Shown piece by piece: positions 1-19,480 of a DNA stretch of 64,000 nt. Each line of letters opens with the position of its first letter. Positions within the stretch are counted from its first letter, which is position 1. Below the pieces are notes generated by a model. It searched no databases. It saw only the letters and a list, made by a program, of their open reading frames with translations, and had not been told where the DNA came from. A program made the translations under genes and the position numbers. Source of the stretch: an uncultured archaeon (GTDB lineage: Archaea > Halobacteriota > Methanosarcinia > Methanosarcinales > Methanoperedenaceae). The stretch is from assembly GCA_902386135.1 (NCBI GenBank), contig CABMIB010000062.1:1-64000 (forward strand), given 5' to 3'.

Positions 1-50
1 AATCCGCAGCCGAAATTGCAGCCCGGGCAAATAGTTGAATAAACGTTCAT
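1..50 (-). CDS. FdhA-like molybdopterin oxidoreductase, N-terminal fragment (runs off the window)
   Basis: Only 16 codons are inside the window. They read MNVYSTICPGCNFGCG, which has the cysteine spacing of the N-terminal [4Fe-4S] site of formate-dehydrogenase-type molybdopterin oxidoreductases. A GAGGTG ribosome binding site sits about 7 bases before the ATG, and the gene begins 3 bases after the FrhB/FdhB stop, so it is the last visible gene of the hdr operon. With FdhB next to it the likely product is the catalytic subunit that oxidises formate or uses F420-linked electrons. The substrate cannot be decided from this fragment. Confidence 0.6.
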   Translation of the reverse strand, partial: MNVYSTICPGCNFGCG

Positions 51-53
51 GGC

Positions 54-1208
54 TCACACCTCAAGCTTAGCTTCAAAATACGGCGGTTTTCGCAAATCCA
101 TTCCAGGCTCATACTTCAACTGCTCCTGCGTGGTGTTGGCGAACCTTCTGTATAGCCTTGTTAAAGGAATATCGACAGGACACACATCGCTGCACTGCCC
201 GCACCCGATGCACGAATCTGCAAGGTGCAAAAAGCGCACCAGATGATACATCGACATCTTATAGGCATCACCGCGATAATGGAACTCTGTACATTTAGAA
301 ATATCGCCGCATGAACACGTAGGACACACTGCTTTGCACGCGCCGCAATCTATGCAGTTCTCAAGCTCTTTCCTGAAATACTCAAGCCTGTTATCGACCG
401 GGACAAAGACTTTGTCCTTCCATTTCTTGCCCAGACCTTCCATCACGCCTTTGATTTTGGCGCGCGCCGCAACTCCTTTCTCATCGGGCTTCTGGAGCTG
501 GATATATCCGGCATCAACAGCGTTCTGCAAAAGCTTCGCTCCCTTCTCTGAATTGATCTCTACAAAAGTGGCTTTGCCTGCAAGGTCTCCAATAACGCCC
601 CAGTTCCCGCACGCAAGGTCGGCATTGTTCGGTATCTTGATCGTGCAGTACCGGCAGCTCTCCCTGCGTCCATATCCTCTCTCTTCAAGCTCATCAATGG
701 TTATAGCATGCTCTTTTCCGTCCTTTGTCTCGAAGATTAGCTTTCCCTTCTCGATCTCTTCGCCGTGCACATCTTCTGGCTGGATCTTGTACATTACTTC
801 AAGCATCTCACGCGTCACTACAGGGTGCATCGATCCGCCGCAGTTAAGACCGATTATAAAAGTATTATCAAGATTTACGGCATTGCGCTTGCTCTGCTCG
901 ATAACCCCGCGCACATCGCAGCCCTTCGCCGGAAGAGCCACTTTCAGGTCCTTATTGGCGATAAGTTTTGTAAAGTTGCTCGGTACCGAATGCAAAGAGC
1001 CTGCCGAGTTCAGGACTTCATTCACATCAGAGGTTATTATCGGTACCGCCTCAAACTCATTGATCTTCTTTAGCACCACGACAGCATCAACTAATTTCTT
1101 CTCAAGCGCAGCCGCAAGTACCGAAGTAACGAGACCGCCTGAACCTCCGCGCTTCCTGACATCTTCTTTCATTGACCAGCCAACGAACATCTCACCTTTC
1201 TGCATCAC
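54..1208 (-). CDS. FrhB/FdhB-family F420-binding iron-sulfur flavoprotein
   Basis: 384 residues. The N-terminal FrhB domain has the glycine-rich RGGSGGLVTSV at about 20-30 and the family cysteines at 123, 185, 188 and 200. The C-terminus carries two [4Fe-4S] motifs, CIDCGACKAVCP (285-296) and CIGCGQCSDVCP (333-344). This FrhB-plus-ferredoxin layout is that of formate dehydrogenase beta subunits and of FrhB proteins attached to HdrA. The expected role is hydride exchange between F420 and its flavin, with electrons passed to MvhD/HdrA. The start overlaps the upstream mvhD stop by 4 bases, and the next gene is FdhA-like. Whether the complex uses F420, formate or both is inference. Confidence 0.88.
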   Translation of the reverse strand: MMQKGEMFVGWSMKEDVRKRGGSGGLVTSVLAAALEKKLVDAVVVLKKINEFEAVPIITSDVNEVLNSAGSLHSVPSNFTKLIANKDLKVALPAKGCDVRGVIEQSKRNAVNLDNTFIIGLNCGGSMHPVVTREMLEVMYKIQPEDVHGEEIEKGKLIFETKDGKEHAITIDELEERGYGRRESCRYCTIKIPNNADLACGNWGVIGDLAGKATFVEINSEKGAKLLQNAVDAGYIQLQKPDEKGVAARAKIKGVMEGLGKKWKDKVFVPVDNRLEYFRKELENCIDCGACKAVCPTCSCGDISKCTEFHYRGDAYKMSMYHLVRFLHLADSCIGCGQCSDVCPVDIPLTRLYRRFANTTQEQLKYEPGMDLRKPPYFEAKLEV

Positions 1209-1654
1209 GACACCCCCCCGGGTTTAAGCGGGCTTGGTCCGAGTTTTTTAATCTGCGCTGTAACATCACGTATAAAATTGGCGAACTTTTCACCTTCGCT
1301 CGCTGAGATCCAGTTAAGCTGAAGCCTTTCCTTTTCGAGTCCCAATTCTCTTACCACGTTCTCAAGGAACTTGTATTTGATCTTTGTCTTATCATTGCCG
1401 TTGACATAGTGGCAGTCGCCTATATGGCAGCCTGTAACTAAAACGGCATCAGCGCCTTCAAGGAAAGCATTGAAAACATGCAGGGGATCGATCCTGCCTG
1501 AGCACATGACGCGTATAATTCTAGCCGTTGGAGGCTGCTGGAATCTTCCCATGCCGGCGCTGTCCGCGCCTCCATAGGAACACCAGTTGCAGCAGAACGC
1601 CACTATCTTGGGCTCCCATCCGTCCGTCTTTGCCGGGGCAGCTTCTGCGCTCAT
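1205..1654 (-). CDS. mvhD: MvhD/FrhD-like [2Fe-2S] electron-transfer subunit (copy 1)
   Basis: 149 residues, the usual size for MvhD. The N-terminal CCNWCSYGGAD (Cys 21, 22, 25), the single cysteine in RVMCSGR (51) and GCHIGDCHY (76, 81) are the conserved ligands of the MvhD iron-sulfur domain. MvhD passes electrons from a hydrogenase, FrhB or formate dehydrogenase to HdrA. It overlaps hdrA upstream and frhB downstream by 4 bases each, so translation is probably coupled. It is a paralogue of the protein at 3660-4094: each HdrA in this operon is followed by its own MvhD. Confidence 0.92.
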   Translation of the reverse strand: MSAEAAPAKTDGWEPKIVAFCCNWCSYGGADSAGMGRFQQPPTARIIRVMCSGRIDPLHVFNAFLEGADAVLVTGCHIGDCHYVNGNDKTKIKYKFLENVVRELGLEKERLQLNWISASEGEKFANFIRDVTAQIKKLGPSPLKPGGVS

Positions 1655-3660
1655 ACCGCCACCTCCTGGAATTTAAATACGTTCTTGATCTGGGCAAGCA
1701 CCTGGTTATTCTTGAAGTGGCTCTGCTCAAGCGCGCCGGTGGGGCATGCTGTAACGCATGTACCGCAGCCTTTACACAGCGCCTTTACCACATTTGCCTT
1801 GCCTGCCTGTTCATCCATTTTGATAGCCTGGAAAGGACACATGGATATGCACACGCCGCATCCCACGCATACGTCAGGATTCGCTACGGCGGTAATCCCT
1901 TCTGTTATGGCTTTCTTATTTTTGAGGAGAATCGTGGCCCGGCTTGCACATGCGCTGCCCTGTGAGACCGCATACGGGATATCCTTCGGTCCTGAAGCCA
2001 CGCCTGCAAGGAACACGCCGTCAATGGTGGTATCCACTGGTCTCAATTTGGGATGTGCTTCCATCAGCAAACCGTCCGCAGCTTTTGAAAGTTTCAGAAG
2101 CTGCTGTATCTGGTTAATACCTTCGTGCGGAACGATACCTGTAGCGAGAACCAGCAGATCGAACTCAAGATTCCTTATTTCGCCGGCAAGCGTATCCTCA
2201 ACCCGGACAAGGATGTTCTTGGTATTGGGGTCTTCTTTCACTTCCACAGGTCTTCCTCTCAGGAATTTCACGCCGAGATTGCGCGACCTGTTATAAGATT
2301 CCTCATATCCCCTGAAGGGCGTCCTGATATCTATATACATTACAGTGTGGTCTGTCTCAGGCCGCTTTTCCTTAAGCAGTTGCGCGTTCTTTATAGTGTA
2401 CATGCAGCATACGCCTGAGCAATAGATATTGGTGTTCTTATCGCGTGAACCAACGCAGTTCACAAATCCAACTCGAATAGGTTCTTTGCAGTCCGAAGGT
2501 CTTACAACATGCCCGCCAGTGGGACCTGCTGCGTTAAGTAGCCGCTCAAATTCCATGGCAGTAATAATATTATCGTACAGTCCATAACCAAAATCATGTT
2601 TTGGCTCAGGGTCGTAAGTCTTGAAGCCCACTGCGCCTATAATAACTCCTACATTAATATCGCTGTAAGTAGGCTTCATATCATAATCGATCGCGCCGCG
2701 CTCGCACGCCTTGGCGCATGCCTTGCATGAGATGCAGTTCTCCTTATCCAGTACTGCCCGGAGCGGTACTGCCTGCGGGAAGGGGACGAATATGGCTTTT
2801 CGCGTCCCGAATCCTTCGTTGAAGTCATAAGGCACTTCGACAGGGCAGGCTTCGCTGCACTTGGCGCAGCCTGTGCATTTGGCAATATCGAGATACCTGG
2901 GTTTGTGTTCGACTTTAACGTTGAAGTTGCCCACGTATCCCTCAACTTCCTTTACCTCAGAATAGCTCATTATCTTGATATTCTTGTTCCTTGCAACCTC
3001 TACCATCTTAGGACCGAGGATGCAAATCGAGCAATCGTTCGTGGGGAAAACTTTATCAAACCGCGCCATCCTACCGCCGATAGAGGGCTCCTTCTCAACG
3101 AGATAGACCTGGAATCCCATATCAGCAAGGTCAAGGGCAGCCTGCATCCCAGCGACTCCGGCGCCTACTACAAGAGCCTTATCGATTACAGGCACTTCGC
3201 TTGCCTGCAGCGGCTCAAGCAGCTTTGCACGCTCCACACCCATACGTATGAGGTCTTTTGCCTTCTCTGTGGCTTTCTCCTTTTCCCACATGTGTATCCA
3301 TGAGCAGTGGTCTCTGATATTCACGAATTCAAGGAAGTACTGGTTAAGACCCATCTGCTCGATGCATGCACGGAACGTGGGCTCATGCGTCTTGGGAGAA
3401 CATGCGGCCACGACAACGCGGTTGAGGTTGTGTTCTTTGATCTTCTGCTGTATGTCAGCCTGGCCTGAGTCAGAGCATGTGAATTTATTGACAGAGGTGA
3501 CCTTTACGCCTGGCAGTGTCCCGATATAATCCGCAACAGCTCTCGTATTCACGACACCCCCGATATTCACGCCGCACTCGCATACAAATACGCCGACCCG
3601 TTTTTCATCGCTATCTTTCTTTACTTCAGTACCTTTTGTTTCAGTACCAGTTTCGCTCAT
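1651..3660 (-). CDS. hdrA: Heterodisulfide reductase subunit A (HdrA), single-module form
   Basis: 669 residues, normal HdrA length. The N-terminal HdrA domain starts at GVFVCECGVNIGG (about 23-35). The FAD-binding VVGAGVAG is at about 164-171. Two [4Fe-4S] motifs follow, CTGCAKCSEACP (262-273) and CISCKACAKACE (309-320), and a C-terminal ferredoxin pair, CVGCGVCISMCP and CKGCGTCVTACP, lies in the last 80 residues. In methanogens HdrA carries the bifurcating FAD that splits electrons between ferredoxin and the HdrBC heterodisulfide site. It is adjacent to the mvhD stop upstream and overlaps mvhD downstream. Confidence 0.95.
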   Translation of the reverse strand: MSETGTETKGTEVKKDSDEKRVGVFVCECGVNIGGVVNTRAVADYIGTLPGVKVTSVNKFTCSDSGQADIQQKIKEHNLNRVVVAACSPKTHEPTFRACIEQMGLNQYFLEFVNIRDHCSWIHMWEKEKATEKAKDLIRMGVERAKLLEPLQASEVPVIDKALVVGAGVAGMQAALDLADMGFQVYLVEKEPSIGGRMARFDKVFPTNDCSICILGPKMVEVARNKNIKIMSYSEVKEVEGYVGNFNVKVEHKPRYLDIAKCTGCAKCSEACPVEVPYDFNEGFGTRKAIFVPFPQAVPLRAVLDKENCISCKACAKACERGAIDYDMKPTYSDINVGVIIGAVGFKTYDPEPKHDFGYGLYDNIITAMEFERLLNAAGPTGGHVVRPSDCKEPIRVGFVNCVGSRDKNTNIYCSGVCCMYTIKNAQLLKEKRPETDHTVMYIDIRTPFRGYEESYNRSRNLGVKFLRGRPVEVKEDPNTKNILVRVEDTLAGEIRNLEFDLLVLATGIVPHEGINQIQQLLKLSKAADGLLMEAHPKLRPVDTTIDGVFLAGVASGPKDIPYAVSQGSACASRATILLKNKKAITEGITAVANPDVCVGCGVCISMCPFQAIKMDEQAGKANVVKALCKGCGTCVTACPTGALEQSHFKNNQVLAQIKNVFKFQEVAV

Positions 3661-4094
3661 TACTTCACTTCCTTGACCGGGTTTTGGCCCAGTTTCTTAA
3701 TCTCTTCTGTAAAATCCCGAATAACTTCTGAGAATCGCAATCCTTCGCTGGCTGATATCCACTCAAGCCTGAGCCTCTTATCAAGCCCGAGTTTTGCCAG
3801 AGCTTTTTTGGTGTTATTTATCCTGACCTCTGCGTTCTTGTTGCCATCGATGTAGTGGCAGTCGCCTATATGGCAGCCTGCAATCAACACGCCGTCGGTA
3901 CCTTCTTTCAGGGCTTTCAGGATGAATGCAGGCTCTACCCTGCTTGAGCACATAACTCTTAATATCCTGACCGTAGGCGGGTACTGGAAACGGCTTACGC
4001 CTGCAAGGTCTGCGCCTGCATACGAGCACCAGTTGCAGCAGAATGCAAGTATGTTCGGCTCAAATTCAGTCGTTTTCGGAGCCTGCTCATTCAT
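3660..4094 (-). CDS. mvhD: MvhD/FrhD-like [2Fe-2S] electron-transfer subunit (copy 2)
   Basis: 144 residues with the same cysteine pattern as the downstream paralogue: CCNWCSYAGAD (19, 20, 23), RVMCSSR (49) and GCHIGDCHY (74, 79). The two proteins can be aligned end to end but differ at many positions, so this is an old duplication rather than a recent repeat. It lies between the double HdrA (4-base overlap) and the single HdrA (one shared base). It probably docks on the C-terminal HdrA module of the large protein. Confidence 0.92.
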   Translation of the reverse strand: MNEQAPKTTEFEPNILAFCCNWCSYAGADLAGVSRFQYPPTVRILRVMCSSRVEPAFILKALKEGTDGVLIAGCHIGDCHYIDGNKNAEVRINNTKKALAKLGLDKRLRLEWISASEGLRFSEVIRDFTEEIKKLGQNPVKEVK

Positions 4095-7000
4095 ACAATT
4101 ACCTCCACTGTACCGGTCTTTTGTTCTATAGAAATGCTCTTTACACCTTTATTGAAAGCATTGATCGCTTCACCTATCTCTTTTGAGGAGAAATGCTGCG
4201 CCGTTATGGCTCCGGCAGGACATGCGGCAGCGCACGAGCCGCAGCCCTTGCATGCAGCAGGGTTGATGCGCGATTTCTTTGCAGTGTAGGTGACCTCTTC
4301 AGCCTTCACGGTTACATCCTGCAAGGACGGCGCATTATACGGGCAGACAGTAACACACGTTCCGCAGCCTATGCATTTAGCCTCGTTCACCACCGAGACT
4401 GCGCCTTCCGTTTCTATGAACTTGCGGGACAGGATTGTACATGCACGGGAGGCAGCCGCGCTTGCCTGTGATATCGCTTCATCCAGGAGCTTGGGCGCCT
4501 GCGCGCTTCCGCACAGGAATACGCCGTCAGTAGCAAAATCCACAGGTCTGAGCTTGGGATGCGCCTCGAGGAAGAATTTGTTCTTATCAAGAGGTATCTT
4601 GAACAACTGATTGATCTCCTCGTTCTCCCCGGCAACTAAAGGAGTGCTCAGCACTACGAGATCTGATGCGATTTCAATGTCTTCATTGAGCATTGAATCG
4701 TGAACCGTTACCGCTCCATCCTGAACTGCGGGCGGTTTCTCAGCATCGTATTTGATGAATATTATTCCAAGGTCTCTGGCATTTTCGTAAAGCCTTTCCA
4801 TGACCCCGTAAGTCCTCATATCGCGGTACAGCACATAGACATTGGCATTGCTATTTGCTTTTTTAATCCTTACAGCGTTCTTTACAGCATCAATGCAGCA
4901 TGTTCTCCCGCAGTATTCTCTCTCTTTATTGCGGGCTCCAACGCACTGTACCATTGTGATAGTCTTTGCGCTGATACTATTGCCGAGCATTTTCTCAAGC
5001 TGTGCCTGCGTAACCACGCGGGAGTCTTTGCCGTAATTAAATAATCCGGCAGGCTCAAAGTTCCGTGCGCCCGTTGCTACTACAGCAGCCCCGAAATCAA
5101 CAGGCATCTCCTTTCCATTTGCCTGGATGATTCCTTTAAAGTTGCCAAGATAGCCTTCGACTTTGATGAGTTTCGCCTCGTTTACGACTACGATATTCTT
5201 GTTCTCATTAACCTTCTGGATGAGTTCTTTTAATACATCGGCTGGCTTTTTTCCGTCGTACAGTTCAGTCATTTCTTTAAGCATTCCGCCGAGTTCTGTT
5301 TCCTTCTCGACGAGTGTAACTCTGTAACCGTTATTTGCGATATCAAGCGCAGCGGTCATGCCAGCCACGCCGCCTCCGAGCACCACCGCACTGTTGATAA
5401 GGGATACTTTTTGCTTGTATAAAGGCTGGAAAAGGGCTGATTTTGCCACGGCCATCTGCACGACCCCCTTTGCCTTTTCAGTGGCTTTCTCCTTTTCCTT
5501 CATATGTACCCAGGAACAGTGTTCGCGTATATTGGCGAGTTCGAAAAGATAGGGATTAAGCCCTGCTTCGCGGCAGGTATTCTGGAACAGAGGCTCATGT
5601 GTACGCGGCGTACATGATGCAACCACCACGCGGTTCAGGTTATTCTTTGCTATGGCGTCCTTTATCGTGACCTGCGAATCAGAGGAACATGCATACAGCA
5701 TTTCCTGGGCATGCGCAACGTTTGGCAGCGTCTTTGCGTACTCCACCACGTTCGGGACATTGACCACGCTGCCAATGTTGATCCCGCAGTGGCAGATGAA
5801 CACACCGATCCTGGGTTCAGGTGACAGGATCTTCTCATCCGGGAACTTTCTCTCTTTTATCAGCGTTCCGCGCTCCGCAGATAAAAGCGCGGCAGCCTTT
5901 GCCGCGGCTGCGCTTGCCTGCGCTACGGTGTCGGGAATGTCCTTTGGTCCCTGTGCTGCGCCGCAAACGTAAATTCCGGGAACGCTGGTCTCTACCGGGC
6001 TCCCCATGTTAGTAGCAATATTCCCGAAGTTATCAAGCGCGATTCCTGAGGAGCCTGCAAGAGCCCTTGTTGAGTCCGAGGGGTCAAGACCTATTGAGAG
6101 AACGACCATATCAAAGTTTTCGGTTTTAAGCTCCCCGGCATTGAAATCCTCGTATTTTAGCGAGAGAGCGTTCTTTGCATCCACAATGACCTCCGGAGGA
6201 CGGGAGTTAATGTATTTGATGCCGTACTCCTTCTGCGCGCGGTTATAGAACTCCTCAAAATTCTTGCCGAATGCGCGGATGTCTATGTGGAATATGGTAA
6301 TATCAAGATCAGAGTCATGCTCTTTTGCGATTATGGATTCTTTTGTGGCATACATGCAGCACACCGAGGAGCAGTGTTTCCTGTTTATCCGCGGATTGCG
6401 CGAACCCACGCACTGGATAAAAGCGATCTTCTTCGGGACTTTGCCGTCAGATTGTTTTGTTACATGCCCCTGCGTCGGGCCGCTTGCGCTCAGGAGGCGC
6501 TCGAACTGAAGCGAGGTGATGACATCGGGATGGTCAAACCTGTATTGTTTCAGCACAGAAGGGTCGAAGGGCTTAAAGCCGGTCGCGAGAACGACTGAAC
6601 CAACGTCCAGCTCGATCTCTTTGTCTTTCTGCTCGTAATCCACTGCTTTCGGTCCGCATACTTTCTTGCATACGCCGCATTTGCCTTTTGTAAGGTACAT
6701 GCACTTTGAGGCGTCAATAGTCGCAACCCTGGGAATTGCCTGGGCAAAAGGAATATAAATTGCTTTACGCTTGCTCATACCCGCATTGTATTCATCCAGT
6801 ACCTTTGTCGGGCATTTCTCTGTGCAGGTGCCGCACCCGGTACATTTTGTCTCGTCCACGTACCGCGCTTTTTTAACAACTTTTACTTTGAAATCCCCGG
6901 CTTTGCCTGTTATGGATTTAACGTCGCTGTATGAAAGTAATTCAATATTGGGATGTCTTCCTGTTTCCACTAGTTTCGGCGACAGGATACACATGGCACA

Positions 7001-7156
7001 GTCATTGGTCGGGAAGGTCTTGTCCAGTTGTGACATCGTACCCCCGATACTCGGTCTTGATTCTATAAGATAGGTCTTGAATCCGCTGTCTGCAAGGTCA
7101 AGGGCTGCCTGAATCCCTGCTATGCCGCCTCCGACGACTGCTACCGAGCCTTTCAT
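4091..7156 (-). CDS. hdrA: Double HdrA: two HdrA modules fused in one polypeptide
   Basis: 1021 residues, about 1.5 times normal HdrA. The first module begins directly at an FAD motif (VAVVGGGIAG, residues 5-14), lacks the N-terminal HdrA domain, and contains CTGCGTCTEKCP near 105 plus an unusually spaced cysteine cluster (CMYLTKGKCGVCKKVC) further on. The second module starts near residue 450 with GVFICHCGINIGS, has a second FAD motif (VVLGGGVAGM) near 600, lacks the internal ferredoxin insert, and ends with CIGCGTCVTVCP and CKGCGSCAAACP. Two flavin sites in one chain mirror an HdrA dimer. Fused HdrA proteins are known from ANME archaea and some sulfate reducers. Which FAD bifurcates is not visible. 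Confidence 0.93.
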   Translation of the reverse strand: MKGSVAVVGGGIAGIQAALDLADSGFKTYLIESRPSIGGTMSQLDKTFPTNDCAMCILSPKLVETGRHPNIELLSYSDVKSITGKAGDFKVKVVKKARYVDETKCTGCGTCTEKCPTKVLDEYNAGMSKRKAIYIPFAQAIPRVATIDASKCMYLTKGKCGVCKKVCGPKAVDYEQKDKEIELDVGSVVLATGFKPFDPSVLKQYRFDHPDVITSLQFERLLSASGPTQGHVTKQSDGKVPKKIAFIQCVGSRNPRINRKHCSSVCCMYATKESIIAKEHDSDLDITIFHIDIRAFGKNFEEFYNRAQKEYGIKYINSRPPEVIVDAKNALSLKYEDFNAGELKTENFDMVVLSIGLDPSDSTRALAGSSGIALDNFGNIATNMGSPVETSVPGIYVCGAAQGPKDIPDTVAQASAAAAKAAALLSAERGTLIKERKFPDEKILSPEPRIGVFICHCGINIGSVVNVPNVVEYAKTLPNVAHAQEMLYACSSDSQVTIKDAIAKNNLNRVVVASCTPRTHEPLFQNTCREAGLNPYLFELANIREHCSWVHMKEKEKATEKAKGVVQMAVAKSALFQPLYKQKVSLINSAVVLGGGVAGMTAALDIANNGYRVTLVEKETELGGMLKEMTELYDGKKPADVLKELIQKVNENKNIVVVNEAKLIKVEGYLGNFKGIIQANGKEMPVDFGAAVVATGARNFEPAGLFNYGKDSRVVTQAQLEKMLGNSISAKTITMVQCVGARNKEREYCGRTCCIDAVKNAVRIKKANSNANVYVLYRDMRTYGVMERLYENARDLGIIFIKYDAEKPPAVQDGAVTVHDSMLNEDIEIASDLVVLSTPLVAGENEEINQLFKIPLDKNKFFLEAHPKLRPVDFATDGVFLCGSAQAPKLLDEAISQASAAASRACTILSRKFIETEGAVSVVNEAKCIGCGTCVTVCPYNAPSLQDVTVKAEEVTYTAKKSRINPAACKGCGSCAAACPAGAITAQHFSSKEIGEAINAFNKGVKSISIEQKTGTVEVIV

Positions 7157-8097
7157 TCAGCCACCTCTTCTTCTGCTTTCGGTTCTGCTTTATTTTCAAT
7201 TTTGGTCTCTATTTTAGTCTCTATTTTCTTCTCTTCCTGTTTGCCTATAGATTCTATAAGGGTTTTAGGCGAGACCATGTTCTTATCAAGCTCAAGCTCT
7301 TTCTCGCTCAGTCCCATCGCAAGACCGATAAGTTGTGTGAAATAAAGTATTGGTAATCCGATAACGGTATTATGCGCCTTTTCCACCATTGACTGCTGGC
7401 CGTCAAGCAGCATGTGGCACATCGGGCACGCCACGACTATGCAGTTTGCGCCCGCAGTCTTTGCCTCGTCGAATAATTTTTTTGTAAGTATGAACGCGTA
7501 ATCCTGTTTGCTCATCAGGAGATTTCCGCCGCAGCATTTTGTCTTCTGGGTAAAAGGAAGACATTCCGCGCCGGTGGCTTTTATAAGATTGTCAAGAGAT
7601 GTCGGATTTTCCGGGTTGTCGAATCTGGATACTTCAGAAGGACGGACAAGGAGACAGCCGTAGTATGGCACGGCTTTAATGCCTTTTAATGGTTTTACGA
7701 ATTTTTTGGCTAATGCCTCAGTCCCGACATCATTTACCATGACATCAAGAAGATGCTTTATCTTAACGCCATTATAACTCTCACCAAGCGCCTTTTCTAT
7801 CTTCGCCCTGAAAGCTTCGTCGGTTTTCATGGCTTTATCGGCTCTTGAAAGATTGTGCGAGCAGATGCTGCATGGTACCACAAGGTCAAGCCCTGTCTTT
7901 TGTGCCAGCATGTTATTCCTTGCTGAAAGCCCCATGGACAATTCCTTGTCGAAAATAGCCTCAAGCGCGCCGCAGCAGTTCCAGTCCTCGATCTCTGTCA
8001 GTTCAATACCTGCGGCTTTGCTTACTGCTTTTGTGGAAGCGTCATACTCCCGTGCAGTGCCGTGCAGGGTGCAGCCCGGATAATATGCGAGCTTCAT
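7153..8097 (-). CDS. hdrB: Heterodisulfide reductase subunit B (HdrB)
   Basis: 314 residues. Two CCG domains are visible: YYPGCTLHG with WNCCGA (Cys 9, 41, 42), and KTKCCGGNLL followed by ACPMCHMLL. These are the ligands of the two non-cubane [4Fe-4S] clusters that reduce CoM-S-S-CoB in methanogen HdrB. The last 30 or so residues are a charged tail of repeated KIETKIE/KAEPKAEEE units that is not part of the catalytic fold. The gene overlaps hdrC upstream and the double hdrA downstream by 4 bases, giving the order hdrC-hdrB-hdrA. Confidence 0.95.
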   Translation of the reverse strand: MKLAYYPGCTLHGTAREYDASTKAVSKAAGIELTEIEDWNCCGALEAIFDKELSMGLSARNNMLAQKTGLDLVVPCSICSHNLSRADKAMKTDEAFRAKIEKALGESYNGVKIKHLLDVMVNDVGTEALAKKFVKPLKGIKAVPYYGCLLVRPSEVSRFDNPENPTSLDNLIKATGAECLPFTQKTKCCGGNLLMSKQDYAFILTKKLFDEAKTAGANCIVVACPMCHMLLDGQQSMVEKAHNTVIGLPILYFTQLIGLAMGLSEKELELDKNMVSPKTLIESIGKQEEKKIETKIETKIENKAEPKAEEEVAE

Positions 8098-12287: not shown

Positions 12288-13415
12288 ATGACCCAATACA
12301 AAATCCCAGTTATCCCAGGTGATGGAATCGGTCCTGAAATAATAAGAGAAGGACGCAAGGTACTCGACACAGCAGGCGAACGGTTCGGCTTTGACATAGA
12401 ATGGGTAGAATACCCGCACGGCGCCGACCACTACCTCAAGACAGGAGAACTCATATCTGAAGATACCCTGAAGGAGCTTTCACAGTACAAGGCCATTTAT
12501 TTTGGCGCCATAGGCGATGAGAGGATCAAACCCGGAATACTGGAGAAGGGCATTCTCCTCAATATCCGTTTTTATTTCGATGAATACGTCAACCTGCGCC
12601 CCGTGAAATTGCTGGAAGGCGTCTGGACTCCTCTTAAGGACAAGACAGCCAAAGATATCGATTTCGTTGTCGTGCGCGAGAATACCGAGGATTTTTATAT
12701 CGGTATCGGCGGACGCGCTAAAAAGGGAAAGAGCAAAAAAACCCTCGAAGTTATGCGAAACATGTACAGCGTGAAATTCGGGCTTGACATCAATTCGGAC
12801 AGCGAGGAGATTGGCTACCAGCTCGGTCTTATCAGCAAAGAAGGTACGCGAAGGGTCATCCGTTATGCTTTCGAGCTTGCAAAGGACAGTAAAAAGCATC
12901 TATCCTCAGTGGATAAAGCAAATGTCCTCTCCGATATCTACGGCTTCTGGCGCGAGGAATTCACTTCAATAGCTGCCGAATATTCTGATGTAAAGACAGA
13001 TTTCAATTTCGTGGACGCCATAACTATGTGGTTCGTCAAGAACCCTGAATGGTTCGATATTGTTGTAGCTCCGAATATGTTCGGCGACATCATAACAGAC
13101 CTTGGCGCGATGATACAGGGCGGTCTGGGGCTTGCCCCGGGCGGGAACATAAACCCTGAGGGCACAAGCATGTTCGAGCCCATACACGGAAGCGCTCCAA
13201 AATACAAAGGCCAGAACAAAGTGAACCCGATAGCGACCATATGGGCAGGAGCGCTCCTGCTTGACCAGCTCGGTGAAAAAGACGCATCATCAGCGATAGT
13301 AAGAGCGATTGAGCAGAATATCGTCAACGGAAAAGTGAAGACATACGATATGGGAGGAACAAGCAAGACATCGGATGTCGGAAGCGATATTGCGCGATTG
13401 GTTAAGGAAGTTTAA
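12288..13415 (+). CDS. leuB: Isocitrate/isopropylmalate dehydrogenase family, probably 3-isopropylmalate dehydrogenase
   Basis: 375 residues, full length. It opens with [11 protein letters not shown], the dinucleotide-binding start of the family. It contains RENTEDFY (substrate-binding loop), [19 protein letters not shown] (metal-binding aspartates) and EPIHGSAP near the C-terminus. It converts a 2-hydroxy-3-carboxy acid to the 2-oxo acid with NAD; leucine synthesis (LeuB) is most likely, with homoisocitrate-type dehydrogenase (AksF, coenzyme B synthesis) as the alternative. A ribosome binding site AGAGG and a TATA-like TTTAATATCC precede it. No leuC or leuD is nearby. Confidence 0.85.
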
Positions 13416-17773: not shown

Positions 17774-18118
17774 ATGACTTGTAACCACAAAATATGTGGA
17801 AGTATCCAGAAGGTGTGGCTTCCTTTTGAAAACAGGGGGCTCATGAAAGGGTTGAAATCCCATCCCTACTGTGTCCTCTGCGGGACGGTCAAGAACATAT
17901 CCTCCGACAGGGCAAAACCTCTTGGTTACTACATGAATATTCTCTCGAATCTTCCAATTACAAAAGTCCAGATTCGCCTGGTCGCAAAGGATATGGAGGA
18001 ACTTGAGGGTTTTGATGATGCATTCTCCATGTCATCGTTCATACAGGAACAATTTTTTATCAATACAGTAAAAAAATATTCAGGATTATCCGAGCATATG
18101 ATTAGAGGAGCACTATAG
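17774..18118 (+). CDS. Conserved-looking hypothetical protein with paired cysteines
   Basis: 114 residues, with a strong ribosome binding site (AAGGAGGA, 8 bases upstream). It begins MTCNHKICGS and has HPYCVLCG near residue 31, so a small zinc-binding N-terminal domain (Cys3/Cys8 with Cys34/Cys37) is possible. The C-terminal half is predicted helical (EELEGFDDAFSMSSF). I do not recognise the family. It stands alone before a 640-base non-coding stretch. Confidence 0.7.
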   Translation: MTCNHKICGSIQKVWLPFENRGLMKGLKSHPYCVLCGTVKNISSDRAKPLGYYMNILSNLPITKVQIRLVAKDMEELEGFDDAFSMSSFIQEQFFINTVKKYSGLSEHMIRGAL

Positions 18119-18241
18119 TACCATCTCTGAATTGATACGTTAATGTAAGTGATAAGAGGGGTGGTGCGGATAGCTGGTGCTGTAGCTGGGGAGCTGCAAA
18201 GAAATAAGTCAAAACAATAAAGATTTTTATAATAAGCACGC

Positions 18242-18293
18242 GCTGGGGCAAGCCCCAGACCCCGGAGAGGCGCCGCCTGCGGCGGTGGTTAGC
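18242..18293 (+). repeat. Structured repeat element, copy 1 (two hairpins)
   Basis: The 52 bases hold hairpin 1, CTGGGG-CAAG-CCCCAG (18243-18258), and hairpin 2, CGCCGCC-TGC-GGCGGTG, ending in GTTAGC. A second copy with about 80% identity is at 19354-19406. The element is strikingly GC-rich in AT-rich surroundings. It may be a small RNA, a mobile miniature element or a transcript-end structure. Strand is set by the order that matches copy 2. Confidence 0.65.
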
Positions 18294-18701
18294 AATGTTG
18301 TTATCCTTATTTGGGATTTATACGGAAGGCCAAATAACGGTATAAGAATTATACAGATTTGTAATATTCAAGTTCTTTAATCGAATATTGTTTAATGCCT
18401 GTATAAGATGTTACAATATTTTCAGGCAGGCTCTTATTCCCGTTAAAGGTGGTTTATTAAATGTATGGAAAAAATCTTTTGGGCAAAATCGGAAGAAAAC
18501 CTGAAATAGTTGTAAAGTCATCGGTTATTTTTCTCCTAGAAATTTTTTGATATTTTCTGATTTGATATTTTCTGTTTATTTCCTTGAGTGAAAATACAGC
18601 CTTGTTCGTGACATTGAATAGCCATATAAAGCCTAAGATTACCTTTGTTTTACAAGGTGATATGGAGCGCAAGTAAGGTCGGAAAATCAAGCCTGAAAGC
18701 C

Positions 18702-18737
18702 CGTAATAAAGTGCGTAATAAAGGACGTAATAAAGTA
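18702..18737 (+). repeat. Three tandem 12-bp repeats at a promoter
   Basis: CGTAATAAAGTG, CGTAATAAAGGA and CGTAATAAAGTA follow each other without gaps. The third runs into the TATA-like AGTATATGTATTTTT (about 18734-18747), and the ATG of the DNA-binding-type protein is 30 bases further on. Such phased repeats beside a promoter are typical of operators with cooperative binding, possibly for the downstream protein itself. Confidence 0.6.
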
Positions 18738-18766
18738 TATGTATTTTTGACGCGATTCTTTTGATC

Positions 18767-19240
18767 ATGGCAAAAGGAAAACGTGGAAGACCGAGGAGTC
18801 AAAAAACACCTGAGCGGATAAGGCGATATCGCACAAATAATCCGACCATATCCATGGTTGGAACTCCAGCCAGGAAAAAAATACTGGACACGGTCAGGGG
18901 AAATCGCAGCTACGGAAAAGTCTTTGATGATATTATGTCCGGCGCACTCAAGCCTGCTGAAGAGATTTTAAAAACGCTGGATGAGGCTGTTAAAGATTCC
19001 CAGGCAAAGGATAAGATCATTCAGGAAAAAGACGAGAGGATTAAAGAACTTGAGAGTGAACTGGAAAATCGTACCATAACTTGCCCATGTGTCTTTTGTG
19101 GAGAAGAGATGATCGTATTTGCAAACGGTCCGGCGGTTGAGGTTATCAGAAAGGAGCTTAAGAGCAGAGGATGGGGGCATCCTGAATGCCGTGAGAGGGC
19201 GAAGAGTCGCCGCCGGGACGGAGGGCGAATGTGGGGATAA
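18767..19240 (+). CDS. Putative DNA-binding protein: AT-hook, coiled coil and zinc ribbon
   Basis: 157 residues from ATG 18767. The N-terminus KGKRGRPRSQK is an AT-hook-like GRPR motif. A segment at about 30-62 (GTPARKKILDTVRG..SYGKVFDDIMSG) resembles a ribbon-helix-helix-type helix pair. A charged coiled coil (about 64-100) follows, then a CPCVFCGEEM...HPEC zinc-binding tail. TATA spacing suggests a leaderless message. Three 12-bp direct repeats lie at the promoter and the gene is flanked by the two structured repeats, so it may regulate itself or the element. The family is not recognised. Confidence 0.72.
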   Translation: MAKGKRGRPRSQKTPERIRRYRTNNPTISMVGTPARKKILDTVRGNRSYGKVFDDIMSGALKPAEEILKTLDEAVKDSQAKDKIIQEKDERIKELESELENRTITCPCVFCGEEMIVFANGPAVEVIRKELKSRGWGHPECRERAKSRRRDGGRMWG

Positions 19241-19353
19241 AGGAGGACGGTGGAGTAACATGTGGAAAATAACAAGATGATGGTGGAAATAGCTGCGTGA
19301 CACAGTGATATAAAAACTTGTGCAAAATCTGAAATTTACAATGATTACCAAGC

Positions 19354-19406
19354 GATGGAGCAAGCTCCAGACCCAAGGAGAAACGCCGCCTTAGGCAGTG
19401 GTTAGC
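19354..19406 (+). repeat. Structured repeat element, copy 2
   Basis: 53 bases matching 18242-18293. Hairpin 1 is TGGAG-CAAG-CTCCA: compared with copy 1 a G-C pair has become A-T on both sides, so the stem is kept. Hairpin 2 (CGCCGCC-TTA-GGCAGTG) has one C-A mismatch. The ending GTGGTTAGC is identical. A TATA-like GATATAAAAAC lies about 45 bases upstream. It sits between the AT-hook gene and the legB promoter. Confidence 0.62.
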
Positions 19407-19480
19407 GAGTTTCTATCTGCTATCCGCCTACTTGCACTTATGTAATGATATGGATTATTGCCGGAAACCAGTAAACACTC

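What the first reader, a model, noticed from the sequence alone, without database searches (positions are those of the whole stretch)
18242..19406. Pair of structured repeats with a compensatory stem change flanking a DNA-binding-type gene
Two copies (18242-18293 and 19354-19406), about 80% identical, each form a CAAG-capped hairpin and a GC hairpin and end GTGGTTAGC. Between copies, stem 1 changed G-C to A-T on both sides, which preserves pairing. They lie about 1.06 kb apart around the AT-hook/zinc-ribbon gene, each with a TATA-like run upstream. They could be a small-RNA family, a miniature mobile element moved or bound by this protein, or a chromosomal repeat used elsewhere.
Basis: partly seen in the sequence, partly recalled or inferred. 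Interest (0 to 1): 0.6.

Follow-up and report, generated by a model that had tools for sequence, protein, structure and literature searches.

The report
Genus-specific folded repeat in methane-oxidising archaea
The two repeats are members of a folded intergenic DNA repeat scattered through nearly all 'Ca. Methanoperedens' genomes, one form of which lies at the end of an RNA-guided-type jumping gene (IS110 family), and they have no special tie to the gene between them.

Summary
Window 18240-18293 and 19352-19406 (+) are two members of one repeat family: a covariance model built without any copy from this genome recovers both (E 1.7e-19 and 3.9e-9). The host is a 'Ca. Methanoperedens' (ANME-2d) archaeon by McrA. 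The family occurs in 28 of 31 genomes of the genus, with 1 to 54 copies each. Outside the genus it was found in 1 of 155 genomes of the order. It has no Rfam match. There are two subfamilies. Type B (TTGCGA loop) lies inside the right-end non-coding segment of IS110/IS1111-type (DEDD) insertion sequences, and also occurs as truncated or solo copies. Type A (GCAAGC loop, the window pair) is found only as solo copies, mostly 3' of genes, at synteny breaks and in co-oriented arrays among toxin-antitoxin genes. The AT-hook/zinc protein occurs in 4 of 31 genomes, so it is not the mover. Best explanation: a non-autonomous, IS110-related intergenic repeat that marks recombination junctions. Origin of type A from the IS, and any RNA function, are inferred. 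Integron-like and REP/RAYT readings fail tests.

The parts
18240..18293 (+). repeat copy 1 (type A): stem P1 18240-18243/18270-18273, stem P2 18244-18248/18253-18257 with CAAG loop, stem P3 18274-18277/18281-18284, tail GTGGTTAGC
   Evidence: model R2 without this genome: E 1.7e-19
19352..19406 (+). repeat copy 2 (type A, degenerate): P1 19352-19354/19384-19386, P2 19356-19360/19365-19369 (19359-19366 is the compensatory pair), P3 19388-19390/19394-19396 with pair 19387/19397 broken
   Evidence: E 3.9e-9
18761..19240 (+). AT-hook/coiled-coil/CxxC-HxxC gene lying between the copies; bystander, no Pfam or NCBIfam family
17774..18118 (+). small conserved gene directly 5' of copy 1; a repeat also follows its orthologue in G002 (L137) and G019 (L039)

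Best explanation
The pair are two solo, non-autonomous members (type A) of a 'Ca. Methanoperedens'-specific intergenic repeat of about 55 nt with a conserved three-helix fold. SHOWN: (1) one family across the genus; (2) the fold is supported by covariation; (3) subfamily B is an integral part of the right-end non-coding segment of IS110-family (DEDD) elements with IS1111-like imperfect subterminal repeats, and is carried with them to new sites; (4) solo B copies include internally deleted IS derivatives; (5) copies lie mostly 3' of genes, rarely between divergent genes; (6) clustered copies are co-oriented, and in some genomes their left and right flanks assort independently, so exchanges happen at or next to the repeat. 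INFERRED: type A derives from (or shares ancestry with) the IS110 right end, spread as IS remnants or miniature derivatives, and now persists as dispersed homology where accessory genes (toxin-antitoxin, glycan genes, here the AT-hook gene) become bracketed by recombination. In the intact IS the folded segment probably serves the element (RNA or end recognition).
For: Family. Fold: 97.0% of cells paired, 6 of 14 pairs with double-sided changes, 53 cells against 11.2 in shuffles, slid controls 1-4 cells. IS110 link: transposase (PF01548 E 5.7e-32, NF033542 E 2.9e-72) directly beside type B in L042, L059, L109, L113, and as fragments in L020, L110, L076. Right end ...GTGTTAATAGTACGCT| beyond the repeat and left end |TGTTCGTATATACAACA on the other side of the gene, with flanks changing there. 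Six identical copies in G018, two in G030 and two in G009 whose unique flanks begin at that same right end. L093 and the first copy of L103 carry right end plus left end with the gene deleted. Position: upstream gene points at the repeat in 52 of 73 cases, divergent pairs 5 of 47. Arrays: about 31 adjacent pairs within 3 kb co-oriented against 2 (p 1.3e-7; positions, test); independent flank assortment in 10 of 29 copies of G024. Synteny breaks at the repeat in L034 and just 3' of it in G002.
Against: No IS110 transposase lies within the 1.5-2 kb examined around any type A copy, and the window genome has no close relative of this IS. Type A shares with B only the core and about 12-14 nt upstream, not the IS terminus, so descent of A from the IS is not proven. 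One type A copy is conserved 3' of a TatD-like gene in six species, with the core better kept than its spacer, which looks more like a maintained element than a decaying remnant. Whether left-end solos are as common as right-end solos was not measured.
Confidence: 0.55

Rival explanations
1. The repeat is an independent, older element (small RNA, 3'-end processing or stability signal, or miniature element) that IS110-type elements captured into their right end; type A is the original.
For: Type A is not IS-linked. It sits 3' of genes and is conserved in place with its core intact in six species. G.U pairs outnumber A.C mismatches 13 to 5 on the repeat strand, which would fit an RNA read from that strand.
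Against: Upstream gene orientation is a preference, not a rule (52 against 21). Same- versus opposite-strand in codirectional settings is only 16 against 8. Copy number varies 1-54 per genome, and three genomes have none.
Confidence: 0.3
2. Integron-like system: the repeats are recombination sites of mobile gene cassettes rich in toxin-antitoxin genes.
For: Co-oriented arrays in L038, L098, L040, L103, L108 and others with PIN, AbiE, HepT and TumE genes between. Independent assortment of flanks.
Against: The same TumE module (81% over 665 nt) lies between repeats in G006 and G024 in opposite orientation relative to the repeats, and the homology stops well short of them. No tyrosine recombinase lies near the arrays (nearest to the G001 array about 94 kb). 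The element is not a single imperfect palindrome with RYYYAAC/GTTRRRY ends.
Confidence: 0.06
3. REP/BIME-like repeat moved by a RAYT (Y1) transposase.
For: Intergenic, 3' of genes, palindromic parts. Y1_Tnp genes are present in the five genomes tested.
Against: No Y1_Tnp on any repeat-bearing contig of the window genome; the nearest elsewhere are isolated cases 3-4 kb away. Three helices rather than one 20-40 nt palindrome, no GTAG/CGTC end, arrays co-oriented rather than alternating.
Confidence: 0.04
4. Repeats moved or bound by the AT-hook/zinc protein between them.
For: The gene is bracketed by the pair; a homologue in G026 lies 72 nt from a repeat.
Against: Homologues in 4 of 31 genomes against repeats in 28 of 31; no recombinase domain; the G002 orthologue keeps the repeat with only a remnant of the gene.
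Confidence: 0.03

Closest known systems
IS110/IS1111-family insertion sequences and their guide RNA (bridge RNA, PMC11208160; seekRNA, PMC11187229)
   Same: Type B sits in the non-coding right end of a DEDD (PF01548+PF02371) element with IS1111-like imperfect subterminal repeats; IS1111 elements usually encode their guide RNA there.
   Different: This IS has long non-coding regions on both sides, so which one encodes the guide is unknown; target-matching loops were not shown in the repeat; type A occurs without the IS.
MITEs / IS-end derivatives
   Same: Short, dispersed, non-autonomous copies; some are internally deleted IS copies carrying both ends (L093, first copy of L103).
   Different: Most copies carry only the right-end core; type A has no recognisable terminal repeats.
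REP/BIME elements
   Same: Palindromic parts, intergenic, mostly 3' of genes; IS elements are known to be associated with REPs (PMC1525189).
   Different: Three helices in about 55 nt, no GTAG/CGTC tag, no RAYT linkage, co-oriented rather than alternating.
Integron attC arrays
   Same: Co-oriented repeats separated by small toxin-antitoxin and other genes.
   Different: No attC architecture or nearby integrase; the same module occurs in both orientations.

Membership tests
IS110/IS1111 right-end segment (type B) | DEDD transposase adjacent at a fixed place | tested here: met
   L042, L059, L109, L113 intact or split; fragments in L020, L110, L076
IS110/IS1111 right-end segment (type B) | repeat lies inside the IS boundary and moves with it | tested here: met
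   flank changes at AGCGTACTATTAACAC beyond the repeat in G018, G030, G009 and at both ends
IS110/IS1111 right-end segment (type A, window copies) | transposase or IS terminus next to the copy | tested here: not met
   none within 1.5-2 kb; no IS terminus upstream
bridge RNA / seekRNA | loops matching target and donor DNA; RNA bound by the transposase | not testable with these tools
   no RNA data; loop-target matches not established
MITE | short non-autonomous copies with the ends of a parent IS | tested here: inconclusive
   met for a few type B copies, not for type A
REP/RAYT | single 20-40 nt palindrome tagged GTAG or CGTC, RAYT in genome near copies | tested here: not met
   consensus
integron attC | gene plus attC move as a unit, integrase at the array | tested here: not met
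any Rfam family | covariance-model match | tested here: not met
   none at gathering threshold nor at E up to 5 on 18150-19450

The most novel reading that the evidence does not exclude
The repeats are live recombination sites of the IS110-type RNA-guided recombinase: solo right-end segments let it join, excise or insert genes between copies in trans, building the co-oriented arrays of toxin-antitoxin genes in methane-oxidising archaea.
Probability: 0.08. Interest if true: 0.85.

Novelty: new member of a known kind. Interest (0 to 1): 0.42.

Why it matters
It gives 'Ca. Methanoperedens' a genus-specific marker repeat with a covarying fold, ties it to RNA-guided IS110-type elements in archaea, and points to places where toxin-antitoxin and glycan loci are rearranged in these uncultured methane oxidisers. 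The conserved fold at the IS right end is a direct candidate for experimental RNA work. I found no earlier description in the held papers.

Tried and rejected
AT-hook gene as partner: rejected by distribution. Gene+repeat cassette inserted at copy 1: rejected, because G002 keeps a remnant of the gene at the orthologous place, so it is ancestral there. Integron: the TumE module is in opposite orientations and no integrase lies near. RAYT. Rfam. TATA run: not conserved. Fold energy of single copies: no better than shuffles. Virus collection: no exact pattern match. Exact right-half pattern in the genome collection: one Streptomyces match, taken as chance. The match at 13089-13143 in the window is inside a coding gene.

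Full report
What is there. The two copies are at 18240-18293 and 19352-19406 on the + strand. They align well only over the element.

Host. The genome (G000, 3.24 Mb, 120 contigs) carries mcrA. The McrA protein is closest to PDB 9QQT and 9QR1 (1220 and 1172 bits against 909 for the next), which are the MCRs of two 'Ca. Methanoperedens' strains (PMC12413448).

Family. A BLAST search with copy 1 hits 26 of 31 genomes of the genus. Covariance model R1 hits 28 of 31 with 1 to 54 copies, and in the order 29 of 186 genomes, all but one in the genus. R1 was trained on the window copies, so I built R2 from 21 copies of other genomes. It finds copy 1 (E 1.7e-19), copy 2 (E 3.9e-9) and two more in the same genome, C52 and C114.

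Fold. In 122 distinct copies, 97.0% of cells in the 14 pairs are paired. Six pairs have double-sided changes (53 cells against 11.2 in shuffles and 1-4 in slid controls). The alignment was fitted to the model, so this leans towards the structure, but the slid controls differ strongly. The window's A-T pair is the only one of its kind at that position. G.U against A.C is 13 to 5 on the repeat strand, a weak hint of strand.

Two subfamilies. Type A (GCAAGC in the hairpin) includes the window pair. Type B (TTGCGA or TGCGA) is more numerous. In L042, L113 and L059 type B is followed by an IS110-type transposase gene on the other strand (Pfam PF01548/PF02371; NCBIfam NF033542). A search for that protein finds it in 9 of 31 genomes. 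Comparing the ends, the element runs from |TGTTCGTATATACAACA through the gene to GTGTTAATAGTACGCT|, and the repeat lies inside, about 50-60 nt from the right end. Six identical copies in G018, two in G030 and two in G009 have different flanks that start at that same right end. So type B belongs to the element rather than being only its target. The two ends share an imperfect subterminal inverted repeat, as in IS1111 elements, whose guide RNA is usually in the right end (PMC11187229, PMC11208160). This IS has long non-coding stretches at both ends, so I do not claim that the repeat is the guide RNA. Many type B copies are solo with ragged downstream ends; some are IS copies with the gene deleted. 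No transposase of this kind was found near type A copies.

Placement. Repeats mostly follow the 3' end of a gene pointing at them (52 against 21) and are rarely between divergent genes (5 of 47; ORF-based, no curated annotation). In six species a type A copy sits 3' of a TatD-like gene with its 24-nt core perfectly kept while the spacer is not alignable; in one of them (L034) what follows the repeat is different. The first window copy follows the same small gene in G002 and G019.

Arrays. Neighbouring copies within 3 kb are nearly always co-oriented: 31 against 2, counted by hand from the positions; binomial p 1.3e-7. In G024, 10 of 29 copies share their left flank with one copy and their right flank with another, so exchanges occur at or next to the repeats. 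Genes between include PIN, AbiEi/AbiEii, HepT and TumE. The TumE module of G006 and G024 is 81% identical but inverted relative to the repeats, and its homology ends before them. This argues against an integron-like unit of gene plus site and for ordinary recombination in accessory regions.

The gene between. The 159-aa protein has no Pfam or NCBIfam family. Homologues are in 4 of 31 genomes. G002 keeps a remnant of it after the orthologous repeat, so it was next to that repeat in the common ancestor. A second homologue lies 72 nt from a repeat in G026; two others have no repeat nearby. It is a bystander or cargo.

What is shown and what is inferred. Shown: family, covariation, restriction to the genus, type B inside IS110-type right ends, placement, co-orientation, flank assortment. 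Inferred: type A descends from the IS right end; the repeat helps recombination by homology alone; the fold serves the IS. Not tested: transcription, mobility, and the frequency of left-end fragments. The genomes are mostly fragmented MAGs, so arrays and full IS copies are under-counted.

Noticed in passing
L041 (G011:C15) 1-7946: Four partial copies of a MraY-like gene tail (79-90% identical) separated by AbiE- and PIN-type genes and two repeats: serial duplication of a gene end with accessory genes.
   Followed up: partly
L040 3869-4533 and L098 8808-9465: The same TumE toxin-antitoxin module (81% nt) lies between repeats in two species in opposite orientation relative to the repeats.
   Followed up: yes
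L113, junction just outside the IS right end: The IS110-type element appears to target the phrase ATCTG|TTATCTGCGTTCATCTGCGG; G018 and G010 copies sit at ATCCTGTC instead.
   Followed up: partly
L042 4246-6832: Two divergent IS110-type transposase genes (35% identical) converge on one type B repeat; the second gene's 3' end reads into the repeat.
   Followed up: partly
L002 1700-2000 (own genome C52): About 200 nt after the third own-genome copy is a degenerate tandem array of GGTTGnATGCAAAAA.
   Followed up: no
window 18694-18740: Tandem CGTAATAAAG units upstream of the AT-hook gene; a similar TCAAGC...CTGTAATAAA stretch precedes the C52 repeat copy.
   Followed up: no
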